NCBI RefSeq assembly: GCF_011038795.1
Contig: NZ_JAAKDU010000003.1
Location: 124,001 to 188,000, forward strand
Source: Streptococcus tangpeifui
Lineage (GTDB): Bacteria > Bacillota > Bacilli > Lactobacillales > Streptococcaceae
Length of the DNA: 64,000 bases
Direction of reading: 5' to 3'
A model generated the notes under the pieces. That model worked only from the letters and a program-made list of their open reading frames with translations, was not told the origin of the DNA and did no database searches. A program made the translations under genes and the position numbers. Shown here one piece after another: positions 1,309-55,111 of the stretch; the first letter of the stretch is position 1; each line of letters starts with the position of its first letter.

Positions 1309-2766
<1,458 letters not shown>

Positions 2767-2823
2767 AAGCCGAGTGTACTACAGGCAAAGTCAAGACCTC
2801 AGACTTCTGTGGCTTTAAAGCTC

Positions 2824-2857
2824 AAAAAGACGCTTTTATACTGAAAGTTGTCTTTTT
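2824..2857 (+). terminator. Rho-independent terminator after bglA
   Basis: Inverted repeat AAAAAGAC (2824-2831) and GTCTTTTT (2850-2857) with an imperfectly paired 18-base interior; the 3' arm is the U-run. It lies 57 bases after the bglA stop. Confidence 0.65.
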
Positions 2858-2876
2858 CTTATGCCGAAAAATTCTG

Positions 2877-2892
2877 TGTTATACTAAATTCA
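2877..2892 (+). promoter_or_regulatory. Extended -10 promoter placing transcription start at or beside the ATG
   Basis: TGTTATACT at 2877-2885 is an extended -10 element (TG, one base, TATACT). The last base of the hexamer is only 6 bases before the ATG at 2892, so initiation at normal spacing would fall on or next to the A of the start codon. No purine-rich ribosome binding site precedes that ATG. Confidence 0.55.
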
Positions 2893-3413
2893 TGAAAACT
2901 TTTGAAGAAATTTATGCCAACCATGCGGAGATGCCCTATATCTCAGCTAAATATGAGGACGAGCTGAGACGCAAGACCATTCCTAAGCGTAACATGGAAC
3001 GAACGAGAGAAGGTTTGCTACCTGGACACATTATCTTGCTTTGGCGGATTAATTTTGGTACCTATACGACCTACAGTCCTCAGCACAAATATTTCTATAC
3101 GACTTATGGTATTGACGTCCAGAAGGAATTGGACTGGTTGATAAAACACGATTACCTTCGTCTGATGTCTGCCCAAGAATCACTCATCTATTTGCGAGCT
3201 GATGAGCTTAAAGACTTCCTAAAAATTAAGACAGTCAAGGGCTTGTCCAAGATGAAGCGGCAGGACTTGGAGCAAAAAACGTTAGAGGTATACAGTGAAG
3301 ACGAATTGGCGCCGCTCTTTGTTCTGCGGGGGTATGCTTTGACAGCCAAGGGTAAAGAGGTCTTAGCTGCTCATTCAGAAATTGTTCGGCGACACCCGCA
3401 AAAGAAATTTTAA
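2892..3413 (+). CDS. Conserved hypothetical protein with SAP-like C-terminal segment
   Basis: 173 residues, charged, no signal peptide or membrane segment. Residues about 1-90 form an aromatic-rich region (LLPGHIILLWRINFGTYTTY, then HKYFYTTYGIDVQKEL). Around residues 108-135 the pattern ADELKDFLKIKTVKGLSKMK followed by RQDLEQKTLEV resembles the helix-extended-helix of a SAP domain, which in other proteins binds nucleic acid; this is only a resemblance. It is a single-gene unit between two operons, with its own extended -10 promoter and no leader. Function unknown. Confidence 0.75.
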   Translation: MKTFEEIYANHAEMPYISAKYEDELRRKTIPKRNMERTREGLLPGHIILLWRINFGTYTTYSPQHKYFYTTYGIDVQKELDWLIKHDYLRLMSAQESLIYLRADELKDFLKIKTVKGLSKMKRQDLEQKTLEVYSEDELAPLFVLRGYALTAKGKEVLAAHSEIVRRHPQKKF

Positions 3414-49447: not shown

Positions 49448-50065
49448 ATGACAGGTATCTATGGCGACTATGCAGATTATCTGCCGCAGATTCTGAAAAC
49501 ATTAACCGATGCTATCAAGACAGCTAACCAAGATCAAAAGGCAGCAACCGGTTTCAAGCTCTACGAACATTTACTGGCTCGCATCAAATCAGAAGACAGT
49601 ATGATTGAAAAATGCGGTCGCAAGGACCTGCCAGCAACTCCTAGATCAGCCCTTAAGGAAATTCATGATAGCATCGGTATTCGTGTCGTCTGTGGCTTCG
49701 TTGATGATATCTACAAAACTGTTGACATTCTCAAGGATATGTCCGGGGTTGAGGTCATAACCGAAAAAGACTATATCGCTCAAGCTAAACCTAACGGCTA
49801 TCGGTCCTACCACCTTATCTTGCAGTTAGAGACAGATTTCCCTGATATTGATGGTAATGCCAGAGGCAAATATTTTGCTGAGGTCCAGCTCCGCACGATT
49901 GCTCAGGATTCTTGGGCCAGTCTGGAACATCAGATGAAGTACAAACATGATATCAAGAACCCTGAATTGATAACCCGTGAACTCAAACGCTGTGCGGATG
50001 AGTTAGCGTCTTGTGATCTGAGTATGCAGACCATTCGCGATTTAATTGAGGAAGGCGGTGATTAA
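49448..50065 (+). CDS. relP: Small alarmone synthetase RelP
   Basis: 205 residues, synthetase domain only, no hydrolase, TGS or ACT domain. It makes ppGpp/pppGpp from GDP/GTP and ATP. Landmarks: SALKEIHDSIGIRVVCGFVD (Mg and nucleotide site), AKPNGYRSYHLIL (G-loop), and FAEVQLRTIAQDSWASLEHQ. The ATG at 49448 has AGAGGA upstream; the frame from 49406 lacks one. It is directly followed by a response regulator and kinase, as in relPRS of S. mutans, where the two-component system controls relP in response to oxidative or competence-related stress. Confidence 0.93.
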   Translation: MTGIYGDYADYLPQILKTLTDAIKTANQDQKAATGFKLYEHLLARIKSEDSMIEKCGRKDLPATPRSALKEIHDSIGIRVVCGFVDDIYKTVDILKDMSGVEVITEKDYIAQAKPNGYRSYHLILQLETDFPDIDGNARGKYFAEVQLRTIAQDSWASLEHQMKYKHDIKNPELITRELKRCADELASCDLSMQTIRDLIEEGGD

Positions 50066-50761
50066 ATGACCTTGCGTATTTTATTGGCAGAAGATGAGGA
50101 ACAACTAGCCCGCGTTTATCAGGCAGCCTTGGAGCATCAAGGTTATCAAGTTGATCACGCCCCAAATGGGCAAGAAGCTGTTGATTTAAGCCGTGAAAAT
50201 CCTTATGATGTTATTATTCTCGACATTATGATGCCGATTAAAACAGGGTTGGAAGCATTGAGTGAGATTCGCGCCTTGGGGGACCGCACCCATATCATCA
50301 TGCTGACGGCTATGTCTGAAATCAATGACCGAGTAACTGGCTTGGATGCTGGAGCTGATGAGTATCTGACCAAACCTATTTCCTTGAAAGAACTTCTAGC
50401 CCGCCTGCGCTCGATGGAGCGCAGACTTGAGGGGAGTTTTACAGCCAAGATTTTAGAATATGGCTCTGTCAAACTTAATGTAGCTGAACAGGAAATGACA
50501 GCCAGCAACACCATCCGTCTGTCCGGCAAAGAAAACAAGCTGATGGAATTCTTTATGCTCAATCCTGCTAAAATGCTGTCTACCTCAGAAATTTTTCAGC
50601 AAATCTGGAGCAAGGATGAGGACGGAGTCACTGAGGATTACGTTTACGTTTATGTTTCCTACCTGCGCCAAAAGCTCAAGTCCATCCAAGCCGATTTGGA
50701 AATTGTTGGCGAGAAAGGCAGGAGTTTCAAATTAATAGAAGCAGGTGACCGTCATGTTTAG
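50066..50761 (+). CDS. relR: OmpR-type response regulator RelR
   Basis: 231 residues. Receiver domain residues 1-118 with acidic pair E9/D10, phospho-acceptor D53 (VIILDIMMP) and KPIS lysine near 104; winged-helix DNA-binding domain from about 130 to the end (RLSGKENKLMEFFMLNPAKM, then DYVYVYVSYLRQKLK). The start codon follows the relP stop with no gap, and its last 8 bases overlap relS. Orthology to RelR is inferred from order and families. Confidence 0.92.
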   Translation: MTLRILLAEDEEQLARVYQAALEHQGYQVDHAPNGQEAVDLSRENPYDVIILDIMMPIKTGLEALSEIRALGDRTHIIMLTAMSEINDRVTGLDAGADEYLTKPISLKELLARLRSMERRLEGSFTAKILEYGSVKLNVAEQEMTASNTIRLSGKENKLMEFFMLNPAKMLSTSEIFQQIWSKDEDGVTEDYVYVYVSYLRQKLKSIQADLEIVGEKGRSFKLIEAGDRHV

Positions 50762-51995
50762 GCACTTACGGATTCGTATTATTATGATCGCCGCCGCAGC
50801 ACTCTTGGCTGCTCTTTTTCTCTTTGCCAGTGTCCTTAATTCTGCTTATTATCTCACGACAAATCGACAAATTGACAGTGCGCTTCAGCTTTTATCGACC
50901 AATAAGGGGGAATTAGCCTATAATAGCCAAACGTCAGAGCGTCTGGGTATTACGTCGCCGGATGCCCTTTATAAATACCGCTATTTCAGCATCCTTTTAG
51001 ATAAGGATAATCATCTGGTTTCTGCCTCTATAGAAAATATCCGCTCTGTTAAGGACGGTGACATTGATACTATTATGCAGAAACTTTCGCGTTCCGATGA
51101 ACCGGATGGGAAATTTATCCTGAGAGGAATTACCTTTTCTTATCGGAAAACCCTTTTAGATAACCATCGAACGCTCATCGTTGTCTTAGATAGCAGCGAG
51201 TTTTATGAGTCCAGCAATCGCCTCAGTCGCCTGACTTATTTTATGTCTGTCATCAGTTTTATAGTCTTTCTTGTGATTTTTACGGTTTTCTCCGGTCGCA
51301 TCATCCGTCCTTTTGTTAGAAATATGGACAAGCAAAGGCGTTTTATCACTAATGCCGGCCATGAACTGAAAACCCCTTTAGCCATCATTCAAGCCAATAC
51401 AGAGCTTCAGGAATTGATGACCGGAGAAACGGAGTGGTCAACCTCCACTAAGGATCAAGTAACCCGCCTGACCAATCTGATTAATTCAATGGTAGCTCTG
51501 GCACGTTTGGAAGAACAGCCTGATTTAGTTTTAGCGGATGTCAATCTATCAGAAGTGACACAAGATGCTGCCGAAGACTTTAAGGGACCCGTTGTCCGTG
51601 ATGGCAAGAGCTTTGTCATGGAAATTATTCCAGACATTCATATTCAGGCCGAAGAAAAATCAATCTTTGAACTAGTCACTATCCTAGTCGATAATGCGAA
51701 TAAATACTGTGATCCGGGCGGTCAAGTCAGCGTTCATCTCAGTCAGGTTGGCCGCACCCGAAAACGGGCCCGTCTGCAAATTTCCAATACCTATAAAGAA
51801 GGCCAGGGTATTGATTACAGTAAGTTTTTCGAGCGTTTTTACCGAGAAGAAGAGTCCCATAACAACAAGAAAAAGTCTGGTTTTGGTATTGGTCTCTCGA
51901 TGGCTCAAAGTGTTGCGAAGCTCTTTCGAGGCCGTATTTTTGCTACTTACAAGGACGATACAATCACCTTTACGGTTGTTTTTCCAAAGTCATAA
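50754..51995 (+). CDS. relS: Sensor histidine kinase RelS
   Basis: 413 residues. Helix 1 at about 7-29, a sensor loop of about 130 residues outside the cell, helix 2 at about 160-185, then H-box NAGHELKTPLAIIQAN with H203, N-box VTILVDNANKYCDPGG and G-box KKSGFGIGLSMAQS. A GTG at 50745 is in frame, but the ATG at 50754 has AGGTGA 5 bases upstream and is preferred; it overlaps relR by 8 bases. Likely partner of RelR in controlling alarmone synthesis. Confidence 0.9.
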   Translation: MFRHLRIRIIMIAAAALLAALFLFASVLNSAYYLTTNRQIDSALQLLSTNKGELAYNSQTSERLGITSPDALYKYRYFSILLDKDNHLVSASIENIRSVKDGDIDTIMQKLSRSDEPDGKFILRGITFSYRKTLLDNHRTLIVVLDSSEFYESSNRLSRLTYFMSVISFIVFLVIFTVFSGRIIRPFVRNMDKQRRFITNAGHELKTPLAIIQANTELQELMTGETEWSTSTKDQVTRLTNLINSMVALARLEEQPDLVLADVNLSEVTQDAAEDFKGPVVRDGKSFVMEIIPDIHIQAEEKSIFELVTILVDNANKYCDPGGQVSVHLSQVGRTRKRARLQISNTYKEGQGIDYSKFFERFYREEESHNNKKKSGFGIGLSMAQSVAKLFRGRIFATYKDDTITFTVVFPKS

Positions 51996-52029
51996 AAAGG
52001 CTAGAGCTGAAAAATGTCTAGCTTTTTTT
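51996..52029 (+). terminator. Terminator of relPRS
   Basis: GGCTAGA / TCTAGC stem flanked by A-run and seven Us, directly after the relS stop. Confidence 0.85.
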
Positions 52030-52077: not shown

Positions 52078-53088
52078 ATGGATAAAGAAGATTGGATAAC
52101 ATTATTTAAAGAGGTTAATGGACGGGATCCAGAAGCGCAGGAAATTGAAGCAGCTATCAGAAATGGTGTTATCGACCAAGTTCCAGAAGAAGCTAAACCT
52201 GCCCCCGAACCAACTCCACAGATCTCAAATAATCACAGCTTCCAAAAGGAAACTACAGCTGGACAGCGTCCAGCTCCTCAGTCCTCAGCAACTCCAGTTA
52301 AATCAGCGGCTGAGGAAAAATCAGCAGAAGTGGGTCAGGAGCAACAGAACCTGATACAGACGAGTCCAACCAAGTCTCAGCAGACCCAGCCACGGTTTGC
52401 CAAACAGAAGATTTTGAAGGTCGGCTTAATCAGTTTAGCCTGCCTGTTTCTTGCGTTAATCTTGGCCCTAGCCGGCTATGGAACTTGGCGCTACCAATCT
52501 GGCAATATCTCTGGAACTTGGAAATTGGAGAAAAAGGTTGTCTATAGCTCTGGTGATAAAATTAAACTGGTTCAAGGCAATGCCAACTCTACCACTCAGG
52601 CTAATGTTGCTTATAAGGAATATCTGACAGTCGATAGAGCTAGGAATCTCTATACTTTTGCCTATCTCCAAGATAAGCAGGATAAGGATTCCGTCGGCCT
52701 TCCTATCACCAATTACTTCCAAAACTCTCTCAAAGCAAATTACTGGAAAAAAACAATCAGGACGACCTACTCTAAAAAGGAGGCCAAAAAGATGGTTGTC
52801 AAATCCTACAATCGTTTCTTCAGTCGCATCGGTGTTAAAGAAACGCTCAAGATAAGGGATCTTAGCTACTTTGACACTGACCGAGATTTGCAAGAGAGAT
52901 TTGCTTATACCTACAGCTATCAGGTCAAAGGAGATACCTTGACCTTGGTAGCTCGGGACAAAAAGGGCAAAAAAGTAGAAACGCTAACCTATAGAAAATT
53001 ATCTAAAAAAGGGACTGAGGATTTTCATAAGCAACTCAAGTCGGTTAGGCTCAAATTTGAAAAAAACATGAAGAAACAATATAACTAG
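52078..53088 (+). CDS. Bitopic membrane protein, paralogue 1
   Basis: 336 residues. Residues 1-32 form a compact motif (DKEDWITLFKEVNGRDPEAQ ... EAAIRNGVI). Residues about 33-107 are Pro/Gln/Ser-rich and probably disordered. One membrane helix at 113-134 follows basic FAKQKILK, putting the N-terminus inside. The outer domain starts GYGTWRYQSGNISGTWKLEK and is lysine-rich. I do not recognise a named family. The next gene has the same plan with equivalent positions nearly unshifted. A TATAAT box lies about 40 bases upstream, between the relS terminator and the ATG. Confidence 0.82.
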   Translation: MDKEDWITLFKEVNGRDPEAQEIEAAIRNGVIDQVPEEAKPAPEPTPQISNNHSFQKETTAGQRPAPQSSATPVKSAAEEKSAEVGQEQQNLIQTSPTKSQQTQPRFAKQKILKVGLISLACLFLALILALAGYGTWRYQSGNISGTWKLEKKVVYSSGDKIKLVQGNANSTTQANVAYKEYLTVDRARNLYTFAYLQDKQDKDSVGLPITNYFQNSLKANYWKKTIRTTYSKKEAKKMVVKSYNRFFSRIGVKETLKIRDLSYFDTDRDLQERFAYTYSYQVKGDTLTLVARDKKGKKVETLTYRKLSKKGTEDFHKQLKSVRLKFEKNMKKQYN

Positions 53089-53107
53089 AAAATAAAGTGA
53101 GGCAAAT

Positions 53108-54067
53108 ATGACAAAAGAAGAATGGATTGAATTTTATAAGTCTGTCAATGGCAGAGAACCGAGTCAGGAAGAAATTGATGCGGCTCAGGCATCTGGCGTC
53201 TTTAGTCCAGATGAGCAGCAAGCAAACTCCAATCAACAGGCCCAAGCAAGCCAGACGGAAGTGAATCCCAATGCCGTTCAAGCTGACCCAAGGTCAGAGA
53301 ATATGGCTCACCCCCAAGCACAGGTTCAAGCAGCTGACTTAACCAGCAGTCAAGCTTTTGCAGGGCAGATGCAGGCTGGCATCTCTGGTATGCAAACGCC
53401 AGTCAATCAGCTCCCCAAGAAAAAGACAAAATTAGTTTGGAAAATTCTGGCTCTCGTTGTTATCGTAGTCTTGATCCTCGGTGCAGGTGGCGGCGGCTTT
53501 ACCTGGTGGCACTATAAATCCGGTGACATTCGAGGAACTTGGGAGATGACAGAGTCCCTCTACTACAATAAAAAGAAGAAAAAGTGGGAAAGTCGTCTTA
53601 AGGATTACACCAAACTTAACGAAGTTTATACTGAAGTCATGACCATTGATAAAGACAATCAGATCAAAAATACTTCCTTTACAGTGATGACCAGCGAGTA
53701 CGACTACACCTTTGTTCCGTTTTCTAATAAATACAGGAGCTTCCGCCGTGTCGATCAATGGAATCGGAAAATTGAAACCAGCATGTCTAAGTCTGATTAT
53801 AGGAAAATGGTTAGCAAGACCGCTTACAAAGAGTTATCCCACACATCAAAATCAGATATTGAAGATTTGATCAAGAGCGATGTTAATAGTGTTTATGATT
53901 ATCAAGAATCCTATCAGATTAAAGAAAATAAATTAACAATTAGCCGTAAGGATAAAAAAGGCAAGGTAGTATCTAAGATAACCTATAAGAAGCTTTCGAA
54001 ATCTCAAGCTAATCAGAGAAAAGAAGACTTTAAAAAGGCCGAATACGATTCAGAGCATAATTATTAA
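53108..54067 (+). CDS. Bitopic membrane protein, paralogue 2
   Basis: 319 residues, tandem duplicate of the preceding gene, 19 bases downstream. N-terminal motif TKEEWIEFYKSVNGREPSQE ... DAAQASGVF, Gln/Ala-rich linker, basic PKKKTK, one helix at about 108-132, then WWHYKSGDIRGTWEMTES and a lysine-rich outer domain ending KKLSKSQANQRKEDFKKAEY. The first 32 and the membrane-proximal 20 residues are most conserved between the two; the linkers share only composition. Function unknown. Ends before a terminator. Confidence 0.82.
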   Translation: MTKEEWIEFYKSVNGREPSQEEIDAAQASGVFSPDEQQANSNQQAQASQTEVNPNAVQADPRSENMAHPQAQVQAADLTSSQAFAGQMQAGISGMQTPVNQLPKKKTKLVWKILALVVIVVLILGAGGGGFTWWHYKSGDIRGTWEMTESLYYNKKKKKWESRLKDYTKLNEVYTEVMTIDKDNQIKNTSFTVMTSEYDYTFVPFSNKYRSFRRVDQWNRKIETSMSKSDYRKMVSKTAYKELSHTSKSDIEDLIKSDVNSVYDYQESYQIKENKLTISRKDKKGKVVSKITYKKLSKSQANQRKEDFKKAEYDSEHNY

Positions 54068-54082
54068 AATTGAAGGCAAACA

Positions 54083-54124
54083 AAAAGACTGAGTTCTGTA
54101 CTAGACAGGATTCAGTCTTTTTTA
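54083..54124 (+). terminator. Terminator after the paired membrane proteins
   Basis: AAAAGACTGA / TCAGTCTTTT, 10-bp stem, 18-base loop; can also serve the leftward DUF1304 gene. Confidence 0.85.
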
Positions 54125-54870: not shown

Positions 54871-54922
54871 GGCTTTGTCAGATAAAAAGTCTGACAGAAT
54901 AAGAAGAAAAGGAGTTAATCCT

Positions 54923-55111
54923 ATGACTACAAAAACTTTAGAACAATTTGACGTGATGGATGAACAAGCACTGGCTACTGTAGAAGGCGGGGGTTATTGG
55001 GACGACTACGATGCTGTAGGTGCTGGGGCTGCTGCTATTAGCGGAACTGCTGCTCCTTGGTATCTCTTGCAAACTTGTGCACCTGTTGTTGACTTCTTGC
55101 CCAGATACTGA
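54923..55111 (+). CDS. Double-glycine class II bacteriocin-like precursor
   Basis: 62 residues. Leader of 23 residues, LEQFDVMDEQALATVEGG, is a textbook ComC/Blp-type double-glycine leader (L at -15/-12 type hydrophobics, acidic pair, GG). The predicted mature peptide is 39 residues, from GYWDDYDAVG through a Gly/Ala-rich AGAAAISGTAAPWYLL to VVDFLPRY, with one Cys. AAAAGGAG lies 8 bases before the ATG; the longer frame from 54875 lacks a site. No immunity protein, C39-peptidase transporter or second peptide lies nearby, so export must rely on a transporter elsewhere. Single-peptide or half of a two-peptide bacteriocin cannot be decided. Confidence 0.85.
   Translation: MTTKTLEQFDVMDEQALATVEGGGYWDDYDAVGAGAAAISGTAAPWYLLQTCAPVVDFLPRY

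What the first reader, a model, noticed from the sequence alone, without database searches (positions are those of the whole stretch)
52078..54067. Tandem paralogous bitopic proteins with conserved inside and membrane-proximal motifs, next to relPRS
Both have a 32-residue cytoplasmic motif (K-E-x-W-I-x-x-x-K-x-V-N-G-R-x-P), a disordered linker, one helix at the same place, and S-G-x-I-x-G-T-W directly outside. Such a plan suits signal transfer or scaffold proteins across the membrane. I do not know a characterised family.
Basis: partly seen in the sequence, partly recalled or inferred. Interest (0 to 1): 0.5.

Follow-up and report, generated by a model that had tools for sequence, protein, structure and literature searches.

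The report
Streptococcal stand-in for membrane zinc ribbons
Two neighbouring streptococcal membrane proteins share a short inner "plug" that, in some families of cell-envelope proteins, sits where other bacteria carry a zinc-binding finger, which suggests that this unnamed piece does the finger's unknown docking job.

Summary
Window 52078-53088 (P1, 336 aa) and 53108-54067 (P2, 319 aa) are tandem paralogues: N-terminal module (17 of 34 identical), unconserved Q/P/A-rich linker, one TM helix, then SGxIxGTW. The linker scores like shuffled sequence, both ends far above it.

The module is not confined to this pair. It heads 10 predicted membrane proteins of this genome (12 copies), occurs in 98 of 247 genomes of the genus, and has no convincing Pfam or NCBIfam match. 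Its placement is telling: of 30 TcaA-type proteins read across the order, 16 have the module, 13 a zinc ribbon, 1 neither, none both. A homologous polytopic neighbour shows the same exchange.

The outer part is predicted as a lipocalin-like barrel, whose first strand probably explains SGxIxGTW; the fold match is moderate (Z up to 7.5).

The relPRS link is weak: found in 3 of 15 genomes examined, against 10 near metG, with a terminator-like hairpin after relS.

Best reading: a cytoplasmic docking module on envelope proteins, here with a lipid-binding-type outer domain. Partner and ligand are inferred, not shown.

The parts
52078..53088 (+). P1, bitopic membrane protein, 336 aa
   Evidence: ORF; paralogue of P2
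53108..54067 (+). P2, bitopic membrane protein, 319 aa, 19 bases after P1
   Evidence: ORF; paralogue of P1
52078..52179 (+). P1 N-terminal module (34 residues, two predicted helices), W...F....GR.P...E
   Evidence: alignments A1/A4; helices 3-14 and 20-28, block pLDDT 78-81
53108..53209 (+). P2 N-terminal module
52180..52401 (+). P1 linker, 74 residues, Q/P/A-rich, predicted disordered, not conserved
   Evidence: pLDDT under 50 at residues 36-109
53210..53422 (+). P2 linker, 71 residues, Q/A-rich, predicted disordered, not conserved
   Evidence: pLDDT under 50 at residues 36-112
52408..52503 (+). P1 transmembrane helix (predicted helix 111-142)
53432..53518 (+). P2 transmembrane helix region (residues about 109-137; modelled helix 109-126, rest under pLDDT 50)
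52498..53085 (+). P1 outer domain, predicted lipocalin-like barrel; begins with SGNISGTW
53519..54064 (+). P2 outer domain, predicted lipocalin-like barrel; begins with SGDIRGTW
51994..52028 (+). hairpin with a T run between relS and P1, terminator-like
   Evidence: fold -12.6 kcal/mol, z -3.4, 1 of 200 shuffles as good; the consensus scanner did not list it
54082..54122 (+). hairpin with a T run after P2, terminator-like
   Evidence: fold -23 kcal/mol, z -6.3, 0 of 200 shuffles; not listed
49451..51995 (+). relP, relR, relS upstream (context, not part of the thing)

Best explanation
P1 and P2 are envelope proteins built of four parts. A 34-residue cytoplasmic helical module docks to a shared cytoplasmic partner. 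A flexible linker of about 70 residues gives reach. One helix crosses the membrane. A lipocalin-like barrel sits at the outer face, where it would bind a lipid or another hydrophobic envelope molecule and so recruit or signal to the inner partner. The module is the functional substitute, in many streptococci and rarely in other Lactobacillales, for the zinc ribbon that stands at the N-terminus of TcaA-type proteins and of their polytopic (DUF6574-like) neighbour elsewhere. Shown here: the anatomy, the modular spread, and the exchange with the zinc ribbon in those two families. Predicted: the outer fold. Inferred: that the module docks to a partner, that this partner is shared, the ligand, and any signalling.
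For: Ends conserved while the linker is not. 10 own-genome genes with 12 copies, all with at least one predicted TM helix and no cysteine in the first 60 residues, on different outer or membrane parts. TcaA-type N-termini: 16 module, 13 zinc ribbon, 1 neither, 0 both, of the 30 loci read, out of 61 genomes with a match. Outside the order, two TcaA proteins (G654, G681) carry an N-terminal ribbon and a third (G558) an internal one just before the last TM helix. DUF6574: 6 module, 2 zinc ribbon, 2 neither, 1 poor match, of 11 genomes with a match; the membrane parts of module-bearing and ribbon-bearing polytopic proteins are homologous (hhalign probability 99.2, E 3.2e-19), the aligned columns lying after module and ribbon. 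Next to zinc-ribbon TcaA an adjacent polytopic ORF has a zinc ribbon in 8 of 13 loci; no mixed pair was seen. Modules and ribbons both occur in runs of one to three. Outer domain: P2's best PDB matches are FABP/BABP proteins and lipocalins (Foldseek best E 8.6e-4, probability up to 1.00); 4qrl lipocalin-like Z 7.2, 3.3 A, 105 of 110; P1 agrees.
Against: No partner or ligand is known. The exchange may be only one or two evolutionary events, as nearly all module carriers are one genus; no tree was built. In three Streptococcus proteins module and zinc ribbon stand in one chain (L061, L033, L067), so they may do different jobs. Two streptococci have a DUF6574 with neither, and one Streptococcus TcaA has neither (L157), so the N-terminal piece is dispensable or replaced again in some lineages. 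This genome's own 442-aa polytopic protein and that of G382 do not match DUF6574, so their membership of that family rests on position and plan. All fold matches are Z under 8, a level the tool warns may be only a common arrangement, and Pfam Lipocalin_4 is below its cut-off. No zinc-ribbon homologue of the P1/P2 outer domain itself was found, so for P1/P2 the exchange is by analogy.
Confidence: 0.5

Rival explanations
1. The N-terminal module is a targeting or turnover tag (placing these proteins at the septum or marking them for a protease), not a docking site for a signalling partner.
For: In the instances read it lies at or near the N-terminus (residue 6 to 19 in the 10 own genes; further copies follow it in some), is short, and is shared by proteins with unrelated outer parts. 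A PrsW-type membrane protein carries it too.
Against: Tandem copies separated by linkers, as in TcaA-type proteins, are more usual for binding modules than for tags (inference).
Confidence: 0.25
2. P1/P2 work like the VtrA/VtrC or ToxR/ToxS co-component sensors: two neighbouring bitopic proteins whose outer lipocalin-like domains bind a lipid together and control transcription.
For: Adjacent gene pair, one TM each, lipocalin-like outer domains; P1 model matches a ToxR/ToxS sensory-domain chain, 8alo_B, at Z 5.9, 3.4 A, 109 of 148; co-component passages in PMC9214523.
Against: No DNA-binding domain: only two short helices, no HTH family over a cut-off. Both outer domains look alike, whereas in the VtrA/VtrC passages the lipocalin-like fold is that of VtrC. 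Homologues also stand as single genes (L090, L091, L092).
Confidence: 0.1
3. They are accessory to RelS, transmitting envelope stress to (p)ppGpp synthesis by RelP.
For: Directly downstream of relPRS in this genome, S. sobrinus and G036.
Against: Terminator-like hairpin between; homologues in 10 of the 15 genomes checked are near metG; the module is on many other proteins.
Confidence: 0.06
4. The outer domains are surface lipid or small-molecule scavengers with a purely structural anchor; the inner module is a passive leftover of domain shuffling.
For: Fold resembles SP_0198 (3ge2, Z 6.5, 3.5 A, 89 of 89 residues), deposited as a streptococcal lipoprotein, hence presumably without a cytoplasmic part. 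Related C19 proteins lack the module.
Against: The module is more constrained than the linker in all six pairs compared.
Confidence: 0.09

Closest known systems
TcaA (teicoplanin-associated envelope protein; not the Tc toxin of similar name), with YvbJ of B. subtilis (name recalled; the Pfam control search rang in B. subtilis)
   Same: Cytoplasmic N-terminal small domain, one TM helix, large outer part; streptococcal TcaA-type proteins carry this very module. For S. aureus TcaA the passages I saw in PMC10328498 report an AlphaFold model with one membrane span and an intracellular zinc finger, and an effect on wall teichoic acid.
   Different: P1/P2 have no TcaA outer domains and no zinc ribbon.
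DUF6574 (PF20214) polytopic proteins
   Same: Same N-terminal module in several streptococci, zinc ribbon in other Lactobacillales.
   Different: Several TM helices; P1/P2 have one and an outer barrel.
Lipocalin/FABP (calycin) fold; streptococcal lipocalin lipoprotein SP_0198 (3ge2, 5cyb)
   Same: Predicted outer barrel and first-strand GxW (GxW signature recalled).
   Different: Membrane-anchored by a TM helix with an inner module; fold scores below Z 8; helical insertions and a C-terminal helix.
VtrA/VtrC and ToxR/ToxS co-component sensors
   Same: Neighbouring membrane-tethered proteins with a lipocalin-like outer domain (passages of PMC9214523).
   Different: No DNA-binding domain here; both members have the predicted barrel.

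Membership tests
TcaA family | TcaA outer domains (PF22813, PF22820) | tested here: not met
   No such hit in P1 or P2 at E up to 1; L159 and L165 hit both
TcaA family | N-terminal zinc ribbon (CxxC...CxxC) | tested here: not met
   No cysteine in the first 60 residues of P1 or P2
Lipocalin/calycin superfamily | Up-and-down beta barrel | tested here: inconclusive
   Two models agree and top matches are mostly calycins, but Z is at most 7.5
Lipocalin/calycin superfamily | GxW on first strand (signature recalled) | tested here: met
   GTW in P1 and P2 opens the first predicted outer strand; its G is invariant and its W nearly so in 13 homologues
Lipocalin/calycin superfamily | Pfam lipocalin profile above cut-off | tested here: not met
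   Lipocalin_4 17.2 and 11.9 bits, cut-off 22.4
Lipocalin/calycin superfamily | Binding of a hydrophobic ligand | not testable with these tools
   needs protein
Co-component sensors (VtrA/VtrC type) | Cytoplasmic DNA-binding HTH in one partner | tested here: not met
   Two short helices; no HTH family over a cut-off; sub-threshold single-member hits of E 0.05 or worse to RecX_HTH1 and Myb-like models among 52 modules
Co-component sensors (VtrA/VtrC type) | Adjacent gene pair, both membrane-tethered | tested here: met
   19-base gap, one predicted TM each
Drc1-Sld2 / RecQ4 N-terminal domain | Profile match | tested here: not met
   Pfam: 1 of 52 members, E 0.028; 2kmu E 0.054 with 9 rows but 0.58 with 52 rows

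The most novel reading that the evidence does not exclude
The module is a new docking domain that binds one conserved cytoplasmic hub in streptococci, so that up to about ten different envelope proteins per cell report to, or are gathered by, the same partner. It replaced the zinc ribbon in partner genes together, which would mean that the zinc ribbons of TcaA, DUF6574 and similar Firmicutes membrane proteins are also hub-binding modules, a role unknown at present.
Probability: 0.3. Interest if true: 0.75.

Novelty: new variant of a known kind. Interest (0 to 1): 0.55.

Why it matters
Small zinc ribbons at the cytoplasmic end of membrane proteins are common in Firmicutes, and what they do is unclear to my knowledge (recalled, not searched exhaustively). 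A metal-free module of no visible kinship in the same place, in two partner genes at once, is a natural swap experiment. It suggests that the function is not metal chemistry as such, and makes it testable by domain exchange and by pulling down the module's partner. It also points out a domain, without a Pfam or NCBIfam model that I could match, that heads many streptococcal envelope proteins.

Tried and rejected
Families: P1 and P2 give nothing over a curated cut-off in Pfam or NCBIfam. The 13 outer domains: best E 0.0038, in one member only. The 52 modules: best E 0.016 in Pfam and 0.068 in NCBIfam, each in one to three members. PDB by sequence: outer domain best E 0.068; module with 9 rows best E 0.0013 to a fused double streptavidin, made of two copies of a 15-residue stretch each at E 6.6 alone, and RecQ4 2kmu E 0.054; with 52 rows these became 0.13 and 0.58, so both were dropped as chance or convergence. 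DUF5640 (a recalled lipocalin-like guess): 0 of 91 genomes over cut-off. Class-wide search for the outer domain: 7 of 398 genomes at E 0.01, four of the genus (own included); the other three (G783, G822, G959) read as unrelated proteins that match mainly in a hydrophobic segment. TcaA family in the phylum: 8 of 199 genomes at E 0.001, 5 over cut-off: own, G558, G654, G681 and G568, which reads as a glycoside hydrolase without ribbon and was dropped as chance; the three under the cut-off read as other proteins without ribbon. Phylum-wide module search: two weak partial hits outside the own genome (6.1e-4, 7.0e-4), both in small proteins without this plan, taken as chance. An 'EWFES' N-terminus in two DUF6574 proteins was tested for spread: one copy in each of two genomes. 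Promoter/terminator scanner: more sites than shuffles only within the noise, and it missed both hairpins that folding shows. Papers on the module: none found (search listings; DUF6574 gave 0 papers). YvbJ in PMC7299342 is an integration site in the passages seen. PMC12419801 mentions a two-gene system with a single-TM zinc-ribbon protein (passages). relPRS, TcaA, lipocalin and bile-sensor papers: listings, with passages only of PMC10328498 and PMC9214523. No fold search of the N-terminal module alone was made, so its fold is not classed as new or known.

Full report
OBSERVATION. P1 and P2 are paralogues (29% over 326 columns, E 3e-34). Cut into regions, the N-terminal 34 residues share 17 identities and score 95 against 19.2 +- 4.2 in shuffles (0 of 1000); the linkers score like shuffles (36 against 36.7; 501 of 1000); the outer parts score 224 against 47.6 (0 of 1000). 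All six pairs among P1, P2 and the two S. sobrinus homologues show the same: both ends above all 1000 shuffles, linker not (the lowest linker count was 65 of 1000).

SURROUNDINGS. Upstream are relP, relR and relS. A hairpin with a T run lies between relS and P1 (51994-52028, z -3.4) and another after P2 (54082-54122, z -6.3); the consensus scanner listed neither. P1 and P2 are 19 bases apart, so they read like a two-gene unit of their own (inference). G036 has the locus too, with three module ORFs, the first cut to 101 residues. I gave a script loci from 15 genomes of the genus: relS lies by the family in 3 (G000, by the window itself, G036, G097), metG in 10 (G000, G042, G043, G097, G113, G126, G129, G142, G175, G190), in some with a gene or gap between; neither was seen in the stretches held from the other four (G082, G180, G246, G278). 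These genomes were picked by hits, so they are not frequencies. G000 and G097 have both sites. The relPRS site therefore looks like a clade-restricted extra copy.

THE MODULE. In this genome a 52-row profile finds 12 copies in 10 genes: P1, P2, a second pair by metG, a 520-aa protein with two copies, a polytopic 442-aa protein followed by a TcaA-type 593-aa protein with two copies (Pfam TcaA_3rd_4th E 8.5e-10), a 251-aa frame with DUF4767, and two more on contigs 1 and 18. In all 10 the conserved W of the first copy lies by residue 19, at least one TM helix is predicted (1, 3 or 5), and the first 60 residues hold no cysteine. In the genus 98 of 247 genomes have it at E 0.001, of which 7 only at 1e-4 or so. 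In the order, with the 9-row profile at E 0.01, 27 of 295 genomes: 24 of the genus (own included; G061 only weakly, in a 56-residue frame), G382 and G479 of another family, and one weak hit in a 34-residue frame (G372). In the phylum 3 of 199, of which the two not own are weak, partial and probably chance. R is invariant in 52 sequences, W, F, P and E nearly so.

THE EXCHANGE. A TcaA profile made from streptococcal outer parts matched 61 of 246 genomes of the order; I read the 30 loci returned, the best-scoring ones. By pattern their N-termini hold: module 16 (15 Streptococcus and G382), zinc ribbon 13 (all outside Streptococcus), neither 1 (G061, Streptococcus), both 0. The classing is by regular expression and was looked over by eye; Pfam confirms Zn_Ribbon_1 together with both TcaA domains in the two such proteins scanned (L159, L165). 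Outside the order, of the five genomes over the Pfam cut-off in the phylum search, G654 and G681 have an N-terminal ribbon, G558 has one internally after six hydrophobic segments and before the last, G568 is a false hit, and the fifth is the own genome. The neighbouring polytopic gene follows suit: an adjacent polytopic ORF has a zinc ribbon in 8 of the 13 zinc-ribbon TcaA loci, and none such is visible for the other five within the flank held. In streptococcal and G382 loci whose flank reaches it, that neighbour has the module (L151, L153, L162; L178, L181-L184). No mixed pair was seen. The membrane parts of the two kinds of neighbour are homologous (hhalign 99.2, E 3.2e-19, columns 141-328 on 71-257), beyond module and ribbon (7 and 6 sequences, own and G382 not among them). 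Pfam calls the streptococcal kind DUF6574 in the three scanned (L047, L029, L094) and the ribbon kind in one of six scanned (L158), the other five not reaching E 0.01 for it; the own 442-aa protein and that of G382 do not match. DUF6574 searched by itself matched 11 of 74 genomes: module 6, zinc ribbon 2, neither 2 (G001, G270, with a shared EWFES start), and one poor match with stops in frame. Both kinds of N-terminal piece occur as one to three copies joined by linkers. Against a simple 'either/or' rule: three proteins of the genus have the module and a zinc ribbon in one chain (L061 with PrsW, L033, L067). As nearly all carriers are one genus, the number of independent exchanges may be one or two; I did not build a tree.

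THE OUTER DOMAIN. AlphaFold2 with four sequences gives mean pLDDT 70.8 (P2) and 68.5 (P1); the P2 outer part is mostly around 90. Foldseek ranks FABP/BABP proteins and lipocalins at the top for P2 (best E 8.6e-4) and for P1 (best 3.8e-3). The second aligner gives for P2 designed barrels at Z 7.5, 4qrl lipocalin-like at Z 7.2 (3.3 A, 105 of 110), and SP_0198 at Z 6.5 (3.5 A, 89 of 89); for P1, 4qrl at Z 7.1 (3.2 A, 104 of 110). Every Z is under 8, so the fold is likely, not proven. The two models are not independent, as they share one set of four sequences. SGxIxGTW opens the first outer strand; in lipocalins a GxW stands at that place (recalled). With this profile the outer family was seen only in the genus: 7 of 398 genomes of the class at E 0.01, four of the genus, the other three reading as unrelated proteins.

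HOW IT PROBABLY WORKS. A short inner module, a floppy tether, a single helix and an outer binding barrel suggest that the barrel meets an envelope molecule and the module holds, or calls in, an inner partner. The substitution for the zinc ribbon says the inner piece's job can be done by two seemingly unrelated folds, which favours binding over metal chemistry (inference). TcaA, which carries the ribbon, affects wall teichoic acid in S. aureus (passages of PMC10328498); P1/P2 are not TcaA.

VERDICT. The surprising part is the module and its exchange with zinc ribbons, not the pair itself.

Noticed in passing
L085:6609-6914 (G036, - strand): Third module ORF between relS and the pair, cut to 101 residues: probably a decayed P1-like gene.
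   Followed up: no
L012:943-1689 and 2268-3074 (own genome, contig 19): TM proteins with SG(N/D)IDGxY outside but no N-terminal module; similar module-less ones in G106, G120, G205 (L101, L098, L096): the outer kind seems to exist without it.
   Followed up: partly
L179 and L180 (G001, G270): DUF6574 proteins of two streptococci lack the module and start with a different shared N-terminus, EWFESxDF; one copy per genome.
   Followed up: partly
L061, L033, L067: Module and zinc ribbon in one chain, one with a PrsW-type intramembrane protease domain.
   Followed up: partly
window 54875-55111: Small ORF with a double-glycine leader, like a class II bacteriocin precursor (by eye).
   Followed up: no
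L160:3179-3712 (- strand): Zinc ribbon, TM and a short outer part with GYW: possibly a zinc-ribbon counterpart of the P1/P2 plan; the frame is short.
   Followed up: no
2kmu (human RecQ4 N-terminus): Resembles the module in a helical stretch but is not significant with the larger profile.
   Followed up: yes
L022, L026 (G126, G142): metG-linked homologues in broken frames: the gene seems to be decaying in some streptococci.
   Followed up: no
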